37,422 bases of DNA, taken from NCBI GenBank assembly GCA_019931245.1, contig JAINDL010000028.1, positions 1 through 37,422 on the forward strand, written 5' to 3'. The translations under genes were made by a program, and so were the position numbers. The first letter of the stretch is position 1. Each line of letters opens with the position of its first letter. Shown here piece after piece: positions 11,425 through 19,787 of this stretch. The notes under the pieces were generated by a model, which was not told the origin of the DNA, searched no databases, and worked only from the letters and a program-made list of their open reading frames with translations. The DNA is from Bryobacteraceae bacterium CoA2 C42 (GTDB taxonomy: Bacteria; Acidobacteriota; Terriglobia; Bryobacterales; Bryobacteraceae).

Positions 11425-12396
11425 ATGGCATCCGGGAAGAAGATTATTCTCTTGACCCCGCGCGGGTTTTGCGCGGGGGTAGTTCGGGCGATTGACGTGG
11501 TGAAGATTGCGCTGGAGATGTACGGCGCACCGATCTACGTGCGCAAAGAGATTGTCCATAACAAGCACGTGGTGGACGAACTGCGGGCGGCCGGAGCTGT
11601 TTTTGTCGAGGAGTTGGACGAGGTGCCGGCGCAGGCCCGGGTGATTTTCAGCGCGCACGGCGTAGCGCCTTCGGTGCGGACCGATGCGGTGGCCCGGAAG
11701 CTGAACGTGATTGACGCGACCTGTCCGCTGGTGACGAAGGTGCATCTCGAGGCGGTGAAGTTCGCGCGGAAAGGTTACTCGATTGTGCTGATTGGCCACG
11801 AGAACCACGATGAGGTTGTCGGGACGCTGGGCGAAGCGCCGGAGGCGATGAAGCTGGTGTCGACCGTTGAGGACGTGGACCGTCTCGAAGTGGCCGATCC
11901 GGCGAAGATGGCCTATTTGACGCAGACGACGTTGAGCCTCGACGAGACGAGCCACATTGTAAAACGGCTGGTGGAGCGCTTCCCGCTGATTCAGGGGCCG
12001 CATTCGCAGGACATCTGCTATGCGACCGAGAACCGGCAGGTAGCGGTGAAGGCGGTGGCGCCGTTGTGCGATCTGCTGCTGGTGGTGGGGTCGAAGAACA
12101 GTTCGAACTCGCTGCGTTTGGTGGAAGTGTGTCAGAACTCGGGCGTGCCGGCGTATCTGGTGGATGATGAGTCCGATGTGCAGACCGCTTGGCTGGAGGG
12201 GATTGCGACCGTGGCGATTACGGCCGGGGCATCAGCGCCCGAGCACCTTGTCGAACGGATCATGGCGTTTCTTGGGGCAAATGGTTTTGCCGAGCGGGAG
12301 GAGCTGGAGGTGCGGGAGGAGGATGTGCGCTTCCAGCTGCCTCCGGAGCTGAACAGCGCCCGGCTCACGCAGATCAGCACGCCCGCTTCGCTATGA
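11425..12396 (+). CDS. ispH: 4-hydroxy-3-methylbut-2-enyl diphosphate reductase
   Basis: Last enzyme of the MEP pathway, an iron-sulfur protein that makes IPP and DMAPP from HMBPP. The three cluster cysteines are C16 (RGFCAGV), C100 (DATCPLV) and C198 (DICYAT). Substrate-side residues H45, H78, the GHENHDE motif at 124-130 with its acid, and GSKNSSNS are all present. At 323 residues the length is usual. It starts 10 nt after the WaaA-LpxK stop with a weak ribosome site, and its stop overlaps the squalene-hopene cyclase start (ATGA), which places precursor supply in the same operon as hopanoid synthesis. Confidence 0.97.
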   Translation: MASGKKIILLTPRGFCAGVVRAIDVVKIALEMYGAPIYVRKEIVHNKHVVDELRAAGAVFVEELDEVPAQARVIFSAHGVAPSVRTDAVARKLNVIDATCPLVTKVHLEAVKFARKGYSIVLIGHENHDEVVGTLGEAPEAMKLVSTVEDVDRLEVADPAKMAYLTQTTLSLDETSHIVKRLVERFPLIQGPHSQDICYATENRQVAVKAVAPLCDLLLVVGSKNSSNSLRLVEVCQNSGVPAYLVDDESDVQTAWLEGIATVAITAGASAPEHLVERIMAFLGANGFAEREELEVREEDVRFQLPPELNSARLTQISTPASL

Positions 12397-14297
12397 CCCC
12401 GAGCCTGCAGGTAACGGACGCACTCGTTGCCGCGGCGGCGAAGACGGCGCGGCAGGCGGTGGAGTGGTTTGCGGACAATCAGCACGAGAGCGGCTACTGG
12501 TGGGGTGACCTGACCGCGGACACGACGCTCGAGGCCGACTACATTCTGTTGCAGTTGTGGCTTTATCCGCCGCAGCAGGGGAGTTGGAACCCGCCGGTGC
12601 GGCAGCAGATTGACCGGGCGGTGCGGTCTGTCCGGGAACGGCAGTTGGCCGAGGGCGGCTTCAATCTCTTTCCGGACGGGCCGGCGGACGTCAATGCCTC
12701 GATCAAGGCTTACTTTGCGCTGAAGGTGGCGGGGGTAGCGGTTGCCGAGGCCCGGATGGTGGCGCTGCGCGAGACCATTCTGCGCTTGGGCGGGCTGCAG
12801 GCAGCCAACAGTTACGTCAAGATTAACCTGAGCCTGTTTGGCCTGTATCCGCGGCCGCATGTGCCGTCGATTCCCCCGGAACTGATTCTGTTGGGGAAGA
12901 CCATCTACGAGATGAGTTCGTGGACGCGGGCGATTGTGATTCCACTGTCCATTGTGCAGGCGTTGACGGTGGAGCCGCGGCCGGTGCCGGCAGGTTTTTC
13001 GCTGGAAGAGCTGCTCGTGCCGGGGGTGAGCTTGGCGCTGCCGCGGGATGACGGTTTCTTTAACCGCCGGAACACGTTTCTGCGGATCGACAAAGCCTTC
13101 AAGCTGTGGGAGCGGTTCGGCAGCGGGGCGGTGCGGCGGCGGGCGATCCGGAAGGCGATGGAGTGGATCACGGAGCGGACCCGCTATACGGACGGGTTGG
13201 CGGCGATCTATCCGCCGATGATGTATACGATCATGGCGATGGATCTGCTGGGATATGCCGCGGACCATCCGGACCGGGCTGAGGCGGAGAATCAGTTTGC
13301 CAATCTGATGGTGGACGACGGGGAGCGGTTTTTCTTCCAGCCCTGTTTTTCGGTGGTATGGGATACGGCGATTGCTTGTCATGCGCTGGGCGAGAGCGGC
13401 ATGGCGGCGCCGGAGATGCTGGCGCGGGCGGGCGAGTGGCTGCTGACCAAAGAGGTCCGGCGGAAGGGCGACTGGAGCGTGAAGCGGCCGACGGTGGAGC
13501 CCTCGGGTTGGTACTTTGAGTTCGCCAACGAGCACTACCCGGACATTGACGATACGGCGATGGTGCTGCTGGGGCTGCAGGATTCGGCTTGCGGCAAGGC
13601 GGCGGTCAGCAAGCGAGCCGTCGACTGGCTGCTGGCGATGCAGTCGAGCGACGGCGGGTGGGCCGCCTTTGACGTGGATAACAACTGGCAGTTTCTGAGT
13701 GACGTGCCGTTTGCCGATCATAACGCGATGCTGGACCCGACCTGCCCCGACATTACGGGCCGGGTGGTGGAGGCGTTGACGCTGTACGGGGTGCGGCCGG
13801 ACCATCCGGCGATCCGGAAGGGGGTGGCGTATCTGGAGCGCGCTCAGGAGGCCGATGGGAGCTGGCAGGGGCGCTGGGGTGTGAACTACATCTACGGCAC
13901 CTGCTTTGCGGTGCGCGGGCTGCGGGCGGCGGGCGAGAGCGACCGGGAGGTGGCGGTGCTGCGGGCCGGCGAGTGGCTGCGGTCGATTCAGAACGCCGAT
14001 GGGGGCTGGGGCGAGAGCCCGGAGAGCTACCGGGCGAAAGTGTTTGTGGCGGCGCCTTCGACGCCTTCGCAGACAGCGTGGGCGGTGCTGGGTCTGCTCG
14101 CAAGCGGGGATACGTACTCGTCGAGCGTGCAGCGGGGCGTCGAGTACCTGATTCAGAACCAGAACGCGGATGGCACGTGGAGCGAAGAGGCGGCGACGGG
14201 GACGGGCTTCCCGAACGTGTTTTATCTGCGATATCACCTATACCGGAACTCGTTCCCGCTGCTGGCGCTGGCGACGTTCCTCAAAGCAGAGCGTTGA
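12393..14297 (+). CDS. shc: squalene-hopene cyclase
   Basis: Cyclises squalene to hopene/hopanol at the membrane. The 634-residue protein has the catalytic DxDD acid as D384-I-D-D387 in HYPDIDDTAMV, the TTLEADY motif near the N-terminus, and multiple QW repeats (QSSDGGWAAF, QEADGSWQGRWG, QNADGGWGES, QNADGTWSEE) that brace the alpha/alpha barrels. GVNYIYGT, a conserved active-site segment, is present. The ATG at 12393 is chosen because it forms an ATGA overlap with ispH and gives normal length. The stop TGA is shared with the TTG start of hpnA. The operon context makes this hopanoid rather than sterol synthesis. Confidence 0.97.
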   Translation: MTPSLQVTDALVAAAAKTARQAVEWFADNQHESGYWWGDLTADTTLEADYILLQLWLYPPQQGSWNPPVRQQIDRAVRSVRERQLAEGGFNLFPDGPADVNASIKAYFALKVAGVAVAEARMVALRETILRLGGLQAANSYVKINLSLFGLYPRPHVPSIPPELILLGKTIYEMSSWTRAIVIPLSIVQALTVEPRPVPAGFSLEELLVPGVSLALPRDDGFFNRRNTFLRIDKAFKLWERFGSGAVRRRAIRKAMEWITERTRYTDGLAAIYPPMMYTIMAMDLLGYAADHPDRAEAENQFANLMVDDGERFFFQPCFSVVWDTAIACHALGESGMAAPEMLARAGEWLLTKEVRRKGDWSVKRPTVEPSGWYFEFANEHYPDIDDTAMVLLGLQDSACGKAAVSKRAVDWLLAMQSSDGGWAAFDVDNNWQFLSDVPFADHNAMLDPTCPDITGRVVEALTLYGVRPDHPAIRKGVAYLERAQEADGSWQGRWGVNYIYGTCFAVRGLRAAGESDREVAVLRAGEWLRSIQNADGGWGESPESYRAKVFVAAPSTPSQTAWAVLGLLASGDTYSSSVQRGVEYLIQNQNADGTWSEEAATGTGFPNVFYLRYHLYRNSFPLLALATFLKAER

Positions 14298-15274
14298 AAC
14301 CGGCACTGGTAACCGGGGCGTCGGGCTTCGTGGGGTGGCACGTGGCGCGGGAGTTGGCCGAGGCGGGGACGCCGGTGCGGGCCCTGACGCGCGGGCGCAA
14401 CCCGGTGCGGGAGCTGCCGGAGCGCTACGGGGACGGGGTGCGGGTGGTGACGGGAGACCTGCAGGACCGGGCATCGCTCGACCGGGCGGTGTCGGGGTGC
14501 GGGGTGGTGTACCACGTGGCGGCGGATTACCGGTTGTGGTCGCCGGAGCCGGGGGAGTTGTACCGGTCGAACGTGGAGGGGACGCGGAACCTGTTGGAGG
14601 CGGCGCGGGCGGCGGGGGTGGAGCGGGTGGTGTACACGAGCACGGTGGGGTGCATCCATTTTGTCGAGGGGGGACTGGGGGAGGAGTCGCTGCCGGTCGG
14701 GCTGGAGGAGATGACGGGGCATTATAAACGCTCGAAGTTTTTGGCTGAGCGGGTGTCGTTGGAGTTTGCCGGGGAGGGGTTACCGGTGGTGATAGTGAAC
14801 CCGACGGCGCCGGTGGGGGATCATGATTTCAAGCCGACGCCCACGGGGCAGACGCTGGTCGATTTTTTGAGCGGGCGGATGCCGGCGTATCTCGACACGG
14901 GGTTGAATGTGGTGGATGTGCGGGATGTGGCGCGGGGGCATTTGCTGGCGGCGGAGCGGGGGCGGGTGGGGGAGCGGTACATATTAGGCAGCGAGAATCT
15001 GACGCTGCGGGAGATTTTCGCTGCCTTGGGGGAGCCGCCGCGGTGGCGCGTGCCGTACGGGGTAGCGTATGGGGCGGCGCTCGTGAGCACGGGGTGGGCG
15101 GCGGTGACGGGGCGGGCGCCGCGGGCGCCGCTTGAGGGGGTGCGGATGGCGCGGAAGAAGATGTGGGTGAGCCATGCCAAGGCGGCGCGGGAGTTGGGTT
15201 ATGCGCCGGCGGCGGCGCAGGTGGGCCTGGAGCGGGCGGCGGGGTGGTTTCGGGCCAACGGGTACTGCCGATGA
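14294..15274 (+). CDS. hpnA: HpnA, hopanoid-associated sugar epimerase (extended SDR)
   Basis: A 326-residue extended short-chain dehydrogenase/epimerase. TGASGFVG at 7-14 is the NAD(P) glycine motif, YHVAADYRLW follows, and YxxxK is Y144-K-R-S-K148; TSTVGCI supplies the Ser/Thr of the active site. Position right after shc identifies it as HpnA rather than a general sugar epimerase. Its exact reaction is not settled in general knowledge of the pathway. The start is a TTG at 14294 sharing bases with the shc stop (TTGA); starts further upstream would overlap shc deeply. Confidence 0.88.
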   Translation: MKPALVTGASGFVGWHVARELAEAGTPVRALTRGRNPVRELPERYGDGVRVVTGDLQDRASLDRAVSGCGVVYHVAADYRLWSPEPGELYRSNVEGTRNLLEAARAAGVERVVYTSTVGCIHFVEGGLGEESLPVGLEEMTGHYKRSKFLAERVSLEFAGEGLPVVIVNPTAPVGDHDFKPTPTGQTLVDFLSGRMPAYLDTGLNVVDVRDVARGHLLAAERGRVGERYILGSENLTLREIFAALGEPPRWRVPYGVAYGAALVSTGWAAVTGRAPRAPLEGVRMARKKMWVSHAKAARELGYAPAAAQVGLERAAGWFRANGYCR

Positions 15275-15936
15275 TGGTGGCGGTGGCGGCGGAGGCGATG
15301 GAGTTTACGGGCTGGTTGGGCCATTGCACGGGGGTGCGGACGCTCGCTTGGCCGGTAGCGTTTGCGCGGCGGGCGGAGTGGAACGGGCGGGTGGTGACGA
15401 TGGTGGCGAACGGGGCGGGGCCGCGATTGGCGGCGGCGGCGCTGGCCGCGGCGCGGGAGCGGGAGACCGTGACGGCCGTGATGAGCGTGGGCTGGTGCGG
15501 GGCGCTCGATCCGGCGCTGCGGCTGAATGATGTGTTTGTGGCGGTGGGGGTGCGGACAGAGGCGGGAGACCGGGCGGCGCTGGCGCCGCGGCGGATGCCG
15601 GCGGCGCGGCGGGGCGTTTTGTGGTCCGGGGACCGGTTTATCGGGACGGCGGCCGAGAAGGCGGCGCTGCGGGCGCGGGGGGCGGACGCGGTGGAGATGG
15701 AGGCGGGCGGTTTGCGGTTTGGCGGGCCCTTTTATGCTGTACGGGTGGTGAGCGATTTGGCCGGTGAGGATTTTGCGCTCGATTTCAACCGGTACCGGGA
15801 TGGTGAGGGCCGGTTTGTGAAGTGGCGGATTGCGCTGGCCGGGTTGCGTCAGCCGGCGGATCTAATTCGTATGGCCCGGCGCGGCCGGGAAGCATCAGAA
15901 GCTTTAGGAGATTTTCTTGCCCAGTGCGAACTCTGA
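15271..15936 (+). CDS. hpnG: HpnG, hopanoid-associated nucleoside phosphorylase
   Basis: Purine nucleoside phosphorylase-like protein of 221 residues. In the known pathway HpnG removes adenine from adenosylhopane to give phosphoribosyl/ribosylhopane. The sequence has SVGWCGALDP at 72-81, the ribose-binding VEMEAGG at 141-147 and SDLAGEDFALDF from 161, the usual place of the base-binding Asp. The ATG at 15271 makes an ATGA overlap with hpnA. The last 20 nt overlap the next gene, whose ribosome binding site (AGGAG, 15906-15910) lies inside hpnG, a sign of coupling to the dehydrogenase that follows. Confidence 0.85.
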   Translation: MMVAVAAEAMEFTGWLGHCTGVRTLAWPVAFARRAEWNGRVVTMVANGAGPRLAAAALAAARERETVTAVMSVGWCGALDPALRLNDVFVAVGVRTEAGDRAALAPRRMPAARRGVLWSGDRFIGTAAEKAALRARGADAVEMEAGGLRFGGPFYAVRVVSDLAGEDFALDFNRYRDGEGRFVKWRIALAGLRQPADLIRMARRGREASEALGDFLAQCEL

Positions 15937-16999
15937 AGTGATGAAAGCGGCCGTGTACCGTGGGAACAGCCAGGTGGTGGTGGAAGAGATTCCGCGGCCG
16001 GTGGCGGGTCCGGGGGAGCTGGTGGTGCGGGTGGAGAGCTGCGGGATCTGCCACACGGACTTGAAAAAGATTGAGTACGACCTGCTGGCGCCGCCGCGGA
16101 TCTACGGGCACGAGACGGCCGGGGTGGTGGCGGCGGTGGGCGAAGGGGTGACGAAGTTTGGGGTGGGGGACCGGGTGGTGGCGTTTCACCACATTCCGTG
16201 CGGCGCGTGTTTTTACTGCGCGCGGCGGCTGTATGCGCAGTGTCCGGGCTACAAGCGGGTAGGGATTACGGCGGGATTTGAGGCGGCCGGGGGCGGGTTT
16301 GCCGAGTATATCCGGGTGATGGACTGGATTGTCGAGCGTGGCGTGGAGAAGATTCCGGACGGGGTGAGCTTTGATGCGGCGAGCTTTGTCGAGCCGGTGA
16401 ACACCTGCTTGAAGGGGGTTGAGCTGGCGGCGCCGCGGGCGGACGAGTTGGCGATTGTGATGGGTCAGGGGCCGATTGGCCTGATTTTCACGATGATTTT
16501 GAAGCACCGGGGGATCCGGACGCTGGTGACGGACCGGATGGCGGGACGGCGGGCGATGGGCGAGCGGTTTGGGGCGGAGCGGGCGCTGAACCCGGGCGTG
16601 GACGATCTGGCGGCCGAGGCGGCGGCGCGGACGGCGGGCCGGGGGGCGGATGTGGTGTTTGTCGCGGTATCGGCGCCGGGGGTGGTGGAGGAGGCCGTGC
16701 GCGTGACGCGGCCGGGTGCGAAGATAGTACTGTTTGCGCAAACGTCTGACAAAGAGCGCATCGAGTTATCCGGCAAAGACATCTGCATGGGGGAGCGTGT
16801 TCTTCTGGGCTCTTACAGCGCCGATGTGGATTGGCAGAAGGAGTCGGCAGACCTGGTCTTCAGCGGCGCCCTGCCGGTGGAGGAGCTGGTGACGCACCGG
16901 GTTCCGCTCGAGCAGATAATGGACGGTTTTAAGCTGGCGTTGCATCCGACGACAGAATCGCTGAAAATTGTGGTGAAGCCCCAAGGTTACCGCTCGTGA
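15917..16999 (+). CDS. zinc-dependent medium-chain dehydrogenase in the hopanoid operon (first of two)
   Basis: A 360-residue MDR alcohol/polyol dehydrogenase. Catalytic zinc ligands are C45 in GICHTD, H65-E66 in GHETAG and an EP motif near 148; structural zinc ligands are C95, C98, C101 and C109 (C-x2-C-x2-C-x7-C). GQGPIG near 180 is the nucleotide-binding turn. A TTG start at 15917 is chosen because AGGAG at 15906-15910 precedes it by 6 nt; the ATG at 15941 is the alternative and has only a weak site. It overlaps hpnG by 20 nt and the second dehydrogenase by 4 nt. The substrate is unknown; a hopanoid side-chain aldehyde or alcohol is the contextual guess. Confidence 0.85.
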   Translation: MPSANSEVMKAAVYRGNSQVVVEEIPRPVAGPGELVVRVESCGICHTDLKKIEYDLLAPPRIYGHETAGVVAAVGEGVTKFGVGDRVVAFHHIPCGACFYCARRLYAQCPGYKRVGITAGFEAAGGGFAEYIRVMDWIVERGVEKIPDGVSFDAASFVEPVNTCLKGVELAAPRADELAIVMGQGPIGLIFTMILKHRGIRTLVTDRMAGRRAMGERFGAERALNPGVDDLAAEAAARTAGRGADVVFVAVSAPGVVEEAVRVTRPGAKIVLFAQTSDKERIELSGKDICMGERVLLGSYSADVDWQKESADLVFSGALPVEELVTHRVPLEQIMDGFKLALHPTTESLKIVVKPQGYRS

Positions 17000-18039
17000 A
17001 CAATCAGCACATGACGGCCGCTGTTCTCTACGGCAAGGAAGATGTCAAGATCGAGCAGGTAGCGATTCCCCAGCTTGGCCCGGGGGATATTTTGGTTCGC
17101 GTGAAGGCGGCGCTGACCTGCGGCACGGATGTGAAGGTGTTTCGCCGCGGGTATCATGCGCGAATGATCATGCCGCCGGCGCTGTTCGGGCATGAGTTAG
17201 CGGGAGATATCGTGGCTACCGGCGGCGCGGTGACGCGGTTTCGCGTGGGGCAGCGGGTGGTGGCGGCGAACTCGGCTCCCTGTGGCGAGTGTTTTTACTG
17301 TAAGCGGGAGCTAGAGAACCTGTGCGAGGACCTGCTTTTTAACAACGGGGCGTACGCGGAGTACATCCGCATTCCGGGGCGGATTGTCGAGAAGAATCTG
17401 TACGCGGTGCCGGAGTCGGTGGATTACATGGACGCGGCGCTGTCGGAGCCGCTGGCTTGTGTACTGCGCGGGATTGAAGAGAGCAACGTGCGGCGCGGGG
17501 ATACGGTGGTGGTGATCGGGCTGGGTCCGATTGGCCTGATGTTTGTGCGGATGCTGAAGGTGATGGGGGCGCGCGTGATTGCGATGGCGCGGCGGCAGGT
17601 ACAACTCGACGACGCCCGGCGGATGGGGGCGGCGGAGCTGATTTCAACCGTGGAGACGGACGACGTGATTGGCGCCGTGCGGGCCCTGACGGATGGCCGG
17701 GGGGCGGATGTGGTGATTGAGGCCGTGGGTAAGCCGGAGGTTTGGGACCTTTCGGTGCGGCTGCTGCGCAAGGGCGGGACGGTAAACTTTTTTGGCGGCT
17801 GCCCGGCCGAGACGCAGGTTCAACTCGACACTAACCTGTTGCATTACTCCGAGTTGACCTGCAAGGCGAGTTTTCATCATACGCCGCGGCTGATTCAGAA
17901 GGCGCTGCAGGCCGTGACGCGGGGCGAGATTCGCGCGCGCGACTTTGTGGTGGGCGAGGAGCCGCTCCATAAGATCAAGGAAGTCCTGCGGTACCTGATG
18001 AACTCAAGCGGCCGGATGAAGACCGCGATTATTCCTTAA
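16996..18039 (+). CDS. zinc-dependent medium-chain dehydrogenase in the hopanoid operon (second of two)
   Basis: A 347-residue relative of the preceding protein with the same domain order. C42 in TCGTD, H66-E67 in GHELAG and EPLAC near 150 form the catalytic zinc site; C96, C99, C102 and C110 form the structural site; GLGPIG is the NAD(P) turn. The sorbitol/threonine dehydrogenase branch is the closest match in feel. The GTG start at 16996 shares a GTGA overlap with the first dehydrogenase. Its stop is immediately followed by the hpnC GTG. Paralogy and tight coupling suggest consecutive steps or a mixed oligomer. Substrate unknown. Confidence 0.85.
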   Translation: MNNQHMTAAVLYGKEDVKIEQVAIPQLGPGDILVRVKAALTCGTDVKVFRRGYHARMIMPPALFGHELAGDIVATGGAVTRFRVGQRVVAANSAPCGECFYCKRELENLCEDLLFNNGAYAEYIRIPGRIVEKNLYAVPESVDYMDAALSEPLACVLRGIEESNVRRGDTVVVIGLGPIGLMFVRMLKVMGARVIAMARRQVQLDDARRMGAAELISTVETDDVIGAVRALTDGRGADVVIEAVGKPEVWDLSVRLLRKGGTVNFFGGCPAETQVQLDTNLLHYSELTCKASFHHTPRLIQKALQAVTRGEIRARDFVVGEEPLHKIKEVLRYLMNSSGRMKTAIIP

Positions 18040-18939
18040 GTGCCACTGCAGCCCAAAGAGTTTGTAGGCGACGCCGCGGCCATGGGCCGGGTCTGGACTC
18101 CGGCGGAGTCGCTGGCCTACACGCGTTGGCTGGCCACTTCGCACTACGAGAACTTTCACGTGGTGAGTTTTCTGCTGCCCAAGCGGCTTCACCAGGATTT
18201 CTACAACGTCTATGCCTTCTGCCGCTGGGCGGATGATCTGGGCGATGAGATGGGAGATACAGCTGAGAGTCTGCGGCTGCTGGGGTGGTGGCGCGGGGAG
18301 TTGGACCGGATGTACGGTGGGGCGGCGAGCCACCCGGTGTTTGTGGCGCTGGGGCCGACGGTGCGGCGGTATGGCCTCGAACGGCAGACGTTTGCCGACC
18401 TGATCCATGCGTTTGAACAGGACCAGGTGAAGACGCGCTACGCGGACTGGGGCGAGGTTTTCGAATACTGTGTGTACTCGGCCAACCCGGTGGGGCGGTT
18501 GGTTTTGGGGTTATGCGGATACCGGGACGCCGAGCGGTATGCCCTGAGCGATAAGACCTGCACGGCGCTGCAGTTGGCCAACTTCTGGCAGGACGTGACG
18601 GTGGATACGGGCAAGGACCGGGTGTATCTGCCGCTCGATCTGCTGGCGCGGCACGGGGTGAGCGAGGCGGATCTGTTTGCGCGTCGTTTCAGCCCGGGTT
18701 TTGCGCGGGTGATGGAGGAGGCTTGCGGGGTGGCGCGGGGGTTGTTTGTGGAGGGCCTGGCGCTGCCGGGGATGGTGGATCGGCGGTTGGCTCTCGATCT
18801 GCGGTTATTCAGCCACGGGGGGCTGGCGGTGCTCGATAAGATTGAACGGCAGGGATGGGACGTGCTGCGGGAGCGGCCGAAGATCGGGCGGTGGGAGCGG
18901 GTGGGGCTGCTCGTCAAGGCGTTGTGGGCGGCGGCATGA
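18040..18939 (+). CDS. hpnC: HpnC, squalene synthase-like (hydroxysqualene synthase) protein
   Basis: Trans-isoprenyl synthase family protein of 299 residues. In the three-gene bacterial route HpnD makes presqualene diphosphate, HpnC converts it to hydroxysqualene and HpnE reduces that to squalene. Diagnostic are HYENFHVVSFLLPKRL near 35-50, the first acidic motif RWADDLGDE and the second NFWQDVTVDTGKDRVYLP. The GTG at 18040 abuts the preceding stop with no gap and has a poor ribosome site; an ATG at 18082 is possible and would trim 14 residues. The stop overlaps hpnD (ATGA). Confidence 0.9.
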   Translation: MPLQPKEFVGDAAAMGRVWTPAESLAYTRWLATSHYENFHVVSFLLPKRLHQDFYNVYAFCRWADDLGDEMGDTAESLRLLGWWRGELDRMYGGAASHPVFVALGPTVRRYGLERQTFADLIHAFEQDQVKTRYADWGEVFEYCVYSANPVGRLVLGLCGYRDAERYALSDKTCTALQLANFWQDVTVDTGKDRVYLPLDLLARHGVSEADLFARRFSPGFARVMEEACGVARGLFVEGLALPGMVDRRLALDLRLFSHGGLAVLDKIERQGWDVLRERPKIGRWERVGLLVKALWAAA

Positions 18940-19787
18940 CGAAGGCGGTGGAGCAGAGCTATGCTTACTGCCGTGAGGTGGCGCGGAGCCGGGCCAAGAA
19001 CTTTTACTACTCGTTCGTGCTGCTGCGGCGGGAGCAGCGGGATGCTATGTGCGCCGTCTATGCGTTCATGCGGTACTGCGATGACCTGAGTGATGACCTG
19101 GAAGGCACGACGGTGGAGGCGATGGCGGAGTGGCGCGGCGAACTGGAGCGGGCGCTGCGGGGCGAATACGGGGCGCATCCGGTGTGGCCGGCGTTTCATG
19201 ATACGGTCGAGCGGTTCCGGATTCCGCGGCAGTACTTCTTTGACATGATCGACGGGGTATCGAGCGATTTGAGTCCGAAGCCGGTGGAGACGTTTGCGGA
19301 CCTCTATCAGTACTGCTACCGGGTGGCGTCGGTGGTGGGGTTGACGATCATCCACATCTTCGGCTTTGAAGACCCGAAGGCGTTGGTGCTGGCCGAGAAG
19401 TGCGGCATTGCGTTTCAGCTGACCAACATTTTGCGGGATGTGCGGGAGGATGCGGGGTTGGGCCGGGTGTACGTGCCGGCGGAGGATCTGCGGCGGTTTG
19501 GGGTGGACGCGCGGGGGATCGCCTACACGCCGGCGTTTGTGGAGCTGATGCGGTTTGAAGCGGGGCGGGCGCGGGCTTACTATGACGAGGCGCGGCCGTT
19601 GATCGGGATGGTGGAGCGGGGAAGCCGGGCGTCGTTGTGGGCGTTGATTGAGATCTACTCGCGCCTGCTGCAGCGGATTGAAGACCGGCAGTACCGGGTG
19701 CTGGACGGGCGGATCCGGCTGTCGACGTGGGAGAAGGTCTGGCTGGTGCTGGAGGCGGGGACGAAGAAGCTGGCGGGGGCGTTCTAG
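18936..19787 (+). CDS. hpnD: HpnD, presqualene diphosphate synthase
   Basis: Condenses two farnesyl diphosphates to presqualene diphosphate. The 283-residue protein has SRAKNFYYSFVLL near the N-terminus, the first Asp-rich motif CDDLSDD and the second NILRDVREDAGLGRVYVPAEDL, typical of HpnD rather than HpnC. ATG at 18936 is set by the ATGA overlap with hpnC. It is the last gene of the plus-strand operon; the HpnE partner is not here. Its stop overlaps that of the converging argR by 4 bp (CTAG serves both strands), so no terminator separates them. Confidence 0.92.
   Translation: MTKAVEQSYAYCREVARSRAKNFYYSFVLLRREQRDAMCAVYAFMRYCDDLSDDLEGTTVEAMAEWRGELERALRGEYGAHPVWPAFHDTVERFRIPRQYFFDMIDGVSSDLSPKPVETFADLYQYCYRVASVVGLTIIHIFGFEDPKALVLAEKCGIAFQLTNILRDVREDAGLGRVYVPAEDLRRFGVDARGIAYTPAFVELMRFEAGRARAYYDEARPLIGMVERGSRASLWALIEIYSRLLQRIEDRQYRVLDGRIRLSTWEKVWLVLEAGTKKLAGAF

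What the first reader, a model, noticed from the sequence alone, without database searches (positions are those of the whole stretch)
15917..18039. Two coupled zinc dehydrogenases between hpnG and hpnC: candidates for the ribosylhopane reductase
HpnG yields ribosylhopane, and bacteriohopanetetrol formation then needs reduction of the opened sugar; as far as I know that reductase is poorly assigned. Here two MDR enzymes with intact catalytic and structural zinc sites follow hpnG directly. The first has its AGGAG inside hpnG, and the second shares a GTGA overlap with the first. They resemble polyol dehydrogenases, which act on such substrates. They may form consecutive steps or a mixed complex.
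Basis: inference. Interest (0 to 1): 0.72.

Follow-up and report, generated by a model that had tools for sequence, protein, structure and literature searches.

The report
Dehydrogenase pair in acidobacterial hopanoid operons
Soil bacteria of the phylum Acidobacteriota keep two zinc dehydrogenase genes inside their operons for hopanoids (sterol-like lipids), one built for NAD and one for NADP, which makes them good but unproven candidates for a missing step in building the hopanoid side chain.

Summary
Two zinc MDR dehydrogenases, MDR1 (15917-16999) and MDR2 (16996-18039), lie between hpnG and hpnC, with zinc ligands intact, AGGAG inside hpnG and a GTGA overlap. They are a conserved hopanoid-operon component: in the family 58 of 58 MDR1 genes follow hpnG and 56 of 57 are followed by MDR2. 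Where the two sit apart (18 of 42 genomes), MDR1 is still behind hpnG and MDR2 before hpnC-hpnD. MDR1 has the NAD-type acid (101 of 101 loci); MDR2 lacks it (108 of 109). I read them as a side-chain redox module, MDR2 being the likeliest ribosylhopane reductase. Against: 25 of 61 acidobacterial genomes with shc, hpnH and hpnG lack the pair; so do 4 of 4 proteobacterial loci; some carriers lack hopanoid genes beside it or altogether; one reduction needs one enzyme. The association was printed in 2017 (PMC5462960: ug1, ug2, function unknown); a 2025 paper still calls the enzyme 'not yet established' (PMC12583986). Partly supported.

The parts
11425..12396 (+). ispH (LytB), first gene of the cluster
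   Evidence: NCBIfam over cut-off
12393..14297 (+). shc, squalene-hopene cyclase; start approximate
   Evidence: TIGR01507 599.1 bits over cut-off
14300..15274 (+). hpnA, hopanoid-associated sugar epimerase (SDR); start approximate
   Evidence: TIGR03466 over cut-off
15271..15936 (+). hpnG, hopanoid-associated phosphorylase/nucleosidase; start approximate (ORF open from 15163)
   Evidence: TIGR03468 94.6 bits: best model, but below its cut-off of 187.1
15906..15910 (+). AGGAG ribosome-binding-site-like motif inside hpnG, 6 nt before TTG 15917
   Evidence: SD-like motif with in-frame TTG in 55 of 79 relatives
15917..16999 (+). MDR1 (position of ug1 in PMC5462960): zinc MDR dehydrogenase, NAD(H)-type; homology starts at ATG 15941
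   Evidence: AlphaFold model pLDDT 92
16996..16999 (+). GTGA start/stop overlap of MDR2 and MDR1 (alternative MDR2 start ATG 17011)
16996..18039 (+). MDR2 (position of ug2 in PMC5462960): zinc MDR dehydrogenase, NADP(H)-type
   Evidence: AlphaFold model pLDDT 75
18040..18939 (+). hpnC, squalene synthase HpnC
   Evidence: TIGR03464 344.9 bits over cut-off
18936..19787 (+). hpnD, presqualene diphosphate synthase; start approximate
   Evidence: TIGR03465 262.4 bits, just below cut-off 278.6

Best explanation
The two genes encode a redox module for the hopanoid side chain, made from one operon with hpnA, hpnG, hpnC and hpnD. HpnH (found in a genome of the same genus, not in this draft) and HpnG make ribosylhopane. 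MDR2, with an NADP(H)-type Rossmann fold, most likely reduces the C-35 aldehyde of the opened ribose to give bacteriohopanetetrol. MDR1, with an NAD-type fold, most likely oxidises or re-sets a hydroxyl on the same chain; its step is unassigned. Shown: gene order, conservation, co-retention when split, zinc ligands, cofactor motifs. Inferred: substrate, direction and order of steps.
For: hpnG-MDR1 adjacent in 58 of 58 family genomes and MDR1-MDR2 in 56 of 57. Of 80 GTDB loci, 80 have hpnG directly upstream and 76 have MDR2 next; the other four end within about 100 bp of MDR1. In 247 acidobacterial genomes, 40 of 66 with shc have the pair against 2 of 181 without (Fisher p 5e-26, not corrected for kinship). 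In 18 of 42 carriers the genes are unlinked, yet MDR1 stays within 235 bp of hpnG and MDR2 directly before hpnC-hpnD. The same family clades appear in both halves of the tree. Cofactor residue: MDR1 D/E 101 of 101; MDR2 not acidic 108 of 109, next residue R/K 107 of 109. The nearest MDR2 relative on plasmids (46%, Rhodococcus opacus) sits with an FGGY sugar kinase and a class II aldolase, and G181's MDR2 is beside a class II aldolase: sugar or polyol substrates. hpnE is kept in 5 of 5 MDR2 loci tested, none of them from the window's own family, so MDR2 is no general HpnE substitute. The step lacked an enzyme in the papers seen.
Against: 25 of 61 acidobacterial genomes with hits for shc, hpnH and hpnG lack the pair; PMC5462960 reports a tetrol maker, Chloracidobacterium thermophilum, without ug2. 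No MDR1/MDR2 homolog in 4 of 4 proteobacterial hpnH loci. Family f38 has the pair beside QueF-like and proline dehydrogenase-like genes; of its two genomes G121 has its hopanoid genes elsewhere and G268 has no shc, hpnH or hpnG hit. In f28 hpnG is not beside MDR1; hpnA is, in 5 of 6 loci read. The own draft genome has no hpnH hit. One reduction does not need two enzymes. MDR2 follows hpnC-hpnD rather than hpnG when split, which could tie it to squalene supply.
Confidence: 0.4

Rival explanations
1. The pair is a redox-neutral editing module: MDR1 oxidises a secondary hydroxyl of the tetrol (for example C-34) with NAD+, and MDR2 reduces the ketone with NADPH, setting a different stereochemistry. 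The C-35 reduction itself is done by another enzyme.
For: Two MDR enzymes with opposite cofactor types, kept together in 42 of 43 genomes with MDR2; sorbitol- and threonine-dehydrogenase-type MDRs act mostly on secondary alcohols (recalled); hopanoid genomes without the pair (25 of 61) would then make the plain isomer.
Against: No lipid data tie pair carriers to a distinct isomer; nothing in the sequence shows the position attacked.
Confidence: 0.17
2. The pair is a general sugar-alcohol dehydrogenase couple that came to lie next to the hopanoid genes but acts on a soluble substrate.
For: More distant pairs lie together in G107, G118, G132, G254, G277 and G181 with no hopanoid gene recognised nearby (only 3 kb held for G254); f38 context is WYL regulator, QueF-like, proline dehydrogenase-like; plasmid relative in a kinase/aldolase operon.
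Against: Adjacency to hopanoid genes in four families, and of both halves when split, is hard to explain for an unrelated function; the distant pairs fall outside the clade of the linked ones.
Confidence: 0.15
3. HpnA, an SDR encoded beside hpnG, is the ribosylhopane reductase, and the MDR pair does something else on the side chain.
For: PMC5462960 suggests HpnA for this step; hpnA lies in many hopanoid loci read here, with and without the pair.
Against: The same paper cites evidence that hpnA is not needed for the tetrol in Burkholderia cenocepacia and that Rhodopseudomonas lacks it.
Confidence: 0.15
4. MDR2 (and perhaps MDR1) serves squalene supply, acting with HpnC and HpnD.
For: In 18 of 18 split genomes MDR2 sits directly before hpnC-hpnD; PMC5462960 makes the same link for ug2. 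hpnE is not in the window's cluster.
Against: Five of five MDR2 loci tested, from other families, carry hpnE after hpnD; no alcohol-aldehyde step is missing in the HpnC-D-E route (established pathway, recalled); MDR1 stays with hpnG.
Confidence: 0.08

Closest known systems
Acidobacterial hopanoid gene clusters A and C with ug1 and ug2 (PMC5462960)
   Same: hpnA-hpnG-ug1 and ug2-hpnC-hpnD order; ug2 described there as often annotated a Zn-binding alcohol dehydrogenase of about 350 aa
   Different: The passages read give no function, cofactor or pairing, and ug1 only as unknown; here both are MDRs kept as a pair with split cofactor type. That ug1 is MDR1 rests on position (figure not held). The paper says SD3 genomes lack ug2 in cluster A; in this family MDR2 stands before hpnC.
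L-threonine 3-dehydrogenase, butanediol dehydrogenase and sorbitol/ketose reductase (MDR superfamily; PDB 2dq4, 6ie0, 1e3j; also 4ej6)
   Same: Fold and two zinc sites; Foldseek E 3.8e-32 to 4ej6 for MDR1
   Different: About 21-30% identity in the Foldseek rows listed; every NCBIfam equivalog listed is missed by a wide margin
TarJ/Bcs1-type NADPH ribulose-5-phosphate reductases (recalled, not tested)
   Same: Zinc MDRs that reduce a pentose derivative to a pentitol with NADPH (recalled)
   Different: Soluble phosphorylated substrate; no sequence comparison was made

Membership tests
Zinc-dependent MDR dehydrogenases | ADH_N plus ADH_zinc_N domains | tested here: met
   PF08240 and PF00107 over cut-off in both
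Zinc-dependent MDR dehydrogenases | Catalytic zinc ligands and four-cysteine structural zinc site | tested here: met
   C/H/E/E and four C without substitution in 101 MDR1 and 109 MDR2 loci, one gap aside
Named polyol/threonine/alcohol dehydrogenase equivalogs | Score over the curated NCBIfam cut-off | tested here: not met
   Best 147 vs 380 bits (MDR1) and 167.4 vs 450 bits (MDR2)
NAD(H)-type MDR (MDR1) | Acidic residue at the end of the second Rossmann strand | tested here: met
   D 98 and E 3 of 101; the rule is recalled
NADP(H)-type MDR (MDR2) | No acid there, basic residue next | tested here: met
   108 of 109 and 107 of 109; the rule is recalled
Hopanoid operon component | Conserved linkage and co-occurrence with hpn genes | tested here: met
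   exceptions: f38, and 25 of 61 hopanoid genomes without the pair
Ribosylhopane reductase | Present wherever ribosylhopane is turned into tetrol | tested here: not met
   absent from 25 of 61 genomes with shc, hpnH and hpnG hits and 4 of 4 proteobacterial loci; a lineage-specific reductase stays possible
Ribosylhopane reductase | NAD(P)H-dependent reduction of ribosylhopane | not testable with these tools
   needs an enzyme assay
HpnE replacement | Absence of hpnE where MDR2 is present | tested here: not met
   HpnE over cut-off in 5 of 5 loci of families f2, f28 and f49; not tested in the window's own family

The most novel reading that the evidence does not exclude
Acidobacteriota use a two-enzyme NAD+/NADPH relay on the hopanoid side chain, oxidising one carbon and reducing another or the same one, so that they make a tetrol isomer, or a route to the tetrol, not known in other bacteria; such an isomer could serve as an acidobacterial soil biomarker.
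Probability: 0.13. Interest if true: 0.75.

Novelty: new variant of a known kind. Interest (0 to 1): 0.5.

Why it matters
Bacteriohopanetetrol is a central extended hopanoid, and hopanes are used as molecular fossils (recalled), yet the enzyme that turns ribosylhopane into it was still unassigned in a 2025 paper (PMC12583986). The pair gives two concrete genes to delete and assay, with a prediction of which cofactor each uses. If right, it would assign this step, though for one bacterial lineage only.

Tried and rejected
Considered and set aside: MDR2 as a substitute for HpnE (hpnE is kept in 5 of 5 loci of other families; the window's own family was not tested). A different reductase clustered with hpnG in genomes that lack the pair: 15 neighbour proteins were scanned and gave squalene/phytoene synthases, FMN_dh proteins, HMG-CoA reductases, a GHMP kinase, a luciferase-like protein, a PLP decarboxylase and others, no clear aldehyde reductase; the FMN_dh proteins are probably type 2 IPP isomerases of a mevalonate route (inference). 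G067 as a natural loss: it has shc and hpnH but no hit for hpnG, MDR1, MDR2, hpnA or HpnD/HpnC, so it says nothing about the pair alone. Fold search added only the superfamily. Phyla other than Acidobacteriota could be reached only through the plasmid collection: the one genome-contig scan kept the best 80 loci, all Acidobacteriota-like. Plasmids: no MDR1 match at E 1e-30; MDR2 best 46%.

Rows left out: A1 used 23 of 30 MDR1 loci and A2 23 of 30 MDR2 loci, picked for spread; one MDR1 locus with an in-frame stop was left out on purpose. One search left out G060's MDR2 hit (34% identity, a paralog) and G038's second MDR1 hit (36%), and joined two split hpnG hits (G024, G040). One search used 79 of 80 loci (one match begins at residue 5). 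One search was given 122 loci; matches under 285 bits or under about 300 residues were dropped, and some genomes are counted twice. The 2 of 181 are G268 and G289; G289 is 88% complete, its contig holds ispH, hpnA and an HpnD-like gene, so a gap is likely there.

Full report
WHAT IS THERE. The window carries ispH-shc-hpnA-hpnG-MDR1-MDR2-hpnC-hpnD on the + strand. MDR1 runs 15917-16999 and MDR2 16996-18039. AGGAG (15906-15910) lies inside hpnG, 6 nt before an in-frame TTG (15917); GTGA (16996-16999) joins the two; MDR2's stop abuts hpnC's GTG at 18040. Protein homology starts only at ATG 15941, but an in-frame upstream TTG behind an SD-like motif recurs in 55 of 79 relatives (20 had none, 2 fitted the ATG, 2 another codon; no chance control). 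In several of the 17 relatives printed, the hpnG codon over it changes (by eye Leu, Ile, Phe) while the TTG stays. The overlap start is therefore credible, though hpnG's own coding constrains the same bases.

FAMILY. Both are zinc MDR dehydrogenases (PF08240, PF00107), 34% identical to each other. They reach no NCBIfam equivalog cut-off: MDR1 147 vs 380 bits for threonine dehydrogenase, MDR2 167.4 vs 450 for scyllo-inosose dehydrogenase. The nearest solved structures are a putative zinc dehydrogenase, threonine dehydrogenases, alcohol dehydrogenases and similar enzymes. AlphaFold models: MDR1 pLDDT 92, MDR2 75.

CONSERVATION IN THE FAMILY. Of 61 genomes, hpnG was found in 59 (E 1e-3), MDR1 in 58 and MDR2 in 59 (E 1e-50); one of the 59 MDR2 hits (G060, 34% identity) is a paralog and was left out. 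hpnG-MDR1 are on the same contig and strand, 31-94 bp apart by match ends, in 58 of 58; MDR1-MDR2 in 56 of 57, the exception being at a contig end. Two genomes, G039 and G060 (82% complete), lack hits for hpnG and for both genes. Of the 80 best GTDB loci, all Acidobacteriota-like though three bear other names, 80 have hpnG upstream by at most 98 bp, 76 have MDR2 next (the other four end just after MDR1) and 72 have hpnC. L179 has MDR2 but no hpnC hit in 15 kb.

CONSERVATION IN THE PHYLUM. In 247 genomes at least 85% complete, MDR1 orthologs score 427-652 bits (42 genomes) and all other matches at most 256. MDR2 orthologs score 431-658 bits in 43 genomes; nine further genes score 293-350. All 42 MDR1 genomes have MDR2; G181 has MDR2 alone. 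shc occurs in 66 genomes, hpnH in 64, hpnG-like hits in 81 (many are probably other nucleosidases). The pair is in 40 of 66 genomes with shc and 2 of 181 without (Fisher p 5e-26; kinship is not corrected for, and carriers fall in five families). hpnG lies directly upstream of MDR1 in 29 of 42, by 34-235 bp and once 813 bp: 2 of f1, 26 of f2, 1 of f49. The other 13 are f28 (11) and f38 (2).

SPLIT GENOMES. In 18 of 42 genomes MDR1 and MDR2 lie 11 kb to hundreds of kb apart or on other contigs. MDR1 still follows hpnG by at most 235 bp in 18 of 18, and MDR2 is followed by hpnC and hpnD in 18 of 18. This is the strongest sign that both belong to hopanoid metabolism and work together.

EVIDENCE AGAINST. 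Sixty-one of the 247 genomes have hits for shc, hpnH and hpnG together; 36 have the pair and 25 do not. Five of the 25 (G107, G118, G147, G173, G213) have one of the more distant MDR2-like genes. Four proteobacterial hpnH loci (Roseomonas, Mycetohabitans, Cupriavidus, Azospirillum) show no MDR1 or MDR2 homolog at E 1e-4 within 21-25 kb. In f28, hpnA directly precedes MDR1 in 5 of 6 loci read; the HpnG-like proteins of that family are away from MDR1 and in 5 of 6 scanned score better against another nucleosidase model than against HpnG. In f38 the pair follows proline dehydrogenase-like and QueF-like genes after a WYL-type regulator (the QueF-like protein was scanned in G121 only); G121 has shc, hpnH and hpnG on another contig and G268 has no hit for them. 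More distant pairs of the same two subfamilies sit where no hopanoid gene was recognised, so the pair may be older than its hopanoid link. Whether f38 branches outside the hopanoid-linked clade is unresolved for MDR1 and weakly supported for MDR2.

COFACTORS. At the end of the second Rossmann strand MDR1 has D (98) or E (3) in 101 of 101, typical of NAD. MDR2 has no acid in 108 of 109 and R/K next in 107 of 109, typical of NADP (the rule is recalled). A biosynthetic reductase would be expected to use NADPH; I recall that the cell-free reduction of Bodlenner 2015 used NADPH, but I saw only that paper's title in a reference list.

CONTEXT OF RELATIVES. The best MDR2 relative on plasmids (Rhodococcus opacus, 46%) lies with a DeoR regulator, an FGGY kinase and a class II aldolase; the MDR2 ortholog of G181 lies beside a class II aldolase. 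Both suggest sugar or polyol substrates.

PRINT. [quoted passage not shown] thermophilum, and elsewhere that SD3 genomes lack ug2 in cluster A. It says the enzyme from ribosylhopane to the tetrol is unknown and proposes HpnA. PMC12583986 (2025, passages) says it has not been established. PMC8537080 (passages) adds nothing on the enzyme. Searches of an open-licence library listed no paper that I could see naming these genes as the reductase; I judged most of them by listing only, and subscription papers are mostly not held.

VERDICT. The reductase assignment is a fair, testable hypothesis for MDR2 in this lineage, not a general answer, and MDR1's step stays open.

Noticed in passing
window 12393-15274, own genome G000: No hpnH in the cluster and no hit in the draft genome at E 1e-20, while a genome of the same genus (G004) has an hpnH on another contig; probably a missing contig, but a real loss would undercut the reductase reading here.
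   Followed up: partly
family genomes (e.g. L162 vs L238): Two kinds of HpnH: a form matching the profile only from about residue 22 (about 402-434 bits), which lies in the cluster in loci such as L162, and a full-length form (about 513-570 bits), mostly elsewhere. Each genome has one strong hit, which suggests replacement.
   Followed up: partly
L131, L132 (G268, G121): WYL regulator and proline dehydrogenase-like gene (with a QueF-like gene in G121) followed by MDR1 and MDR2, outside any hopanoid cluster.
   Followed up: partly
G000:C182:1478-3349 and G000:C112:1823-2602: A second squalene-hopene cyclase and a third HpnC/HpnD-like synthase in the own genome, away from this cluster.
   Followed up: no
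L147:8452-10676 (G067): After hpnH and a small unknown gene the contig carries transposase-like ORFs (by eye, no family search), where hpnA-hpnG-MDR1-MDR2 stand in G219 of the same genus.
   Followed up: partly
L211, L182, L208: GTDB records titled Bordetella parapertussis, Nevskia soli and Acidimicrobiia carry the acidobacterial cluster; the record names are probably wrong.
   Followed up: no
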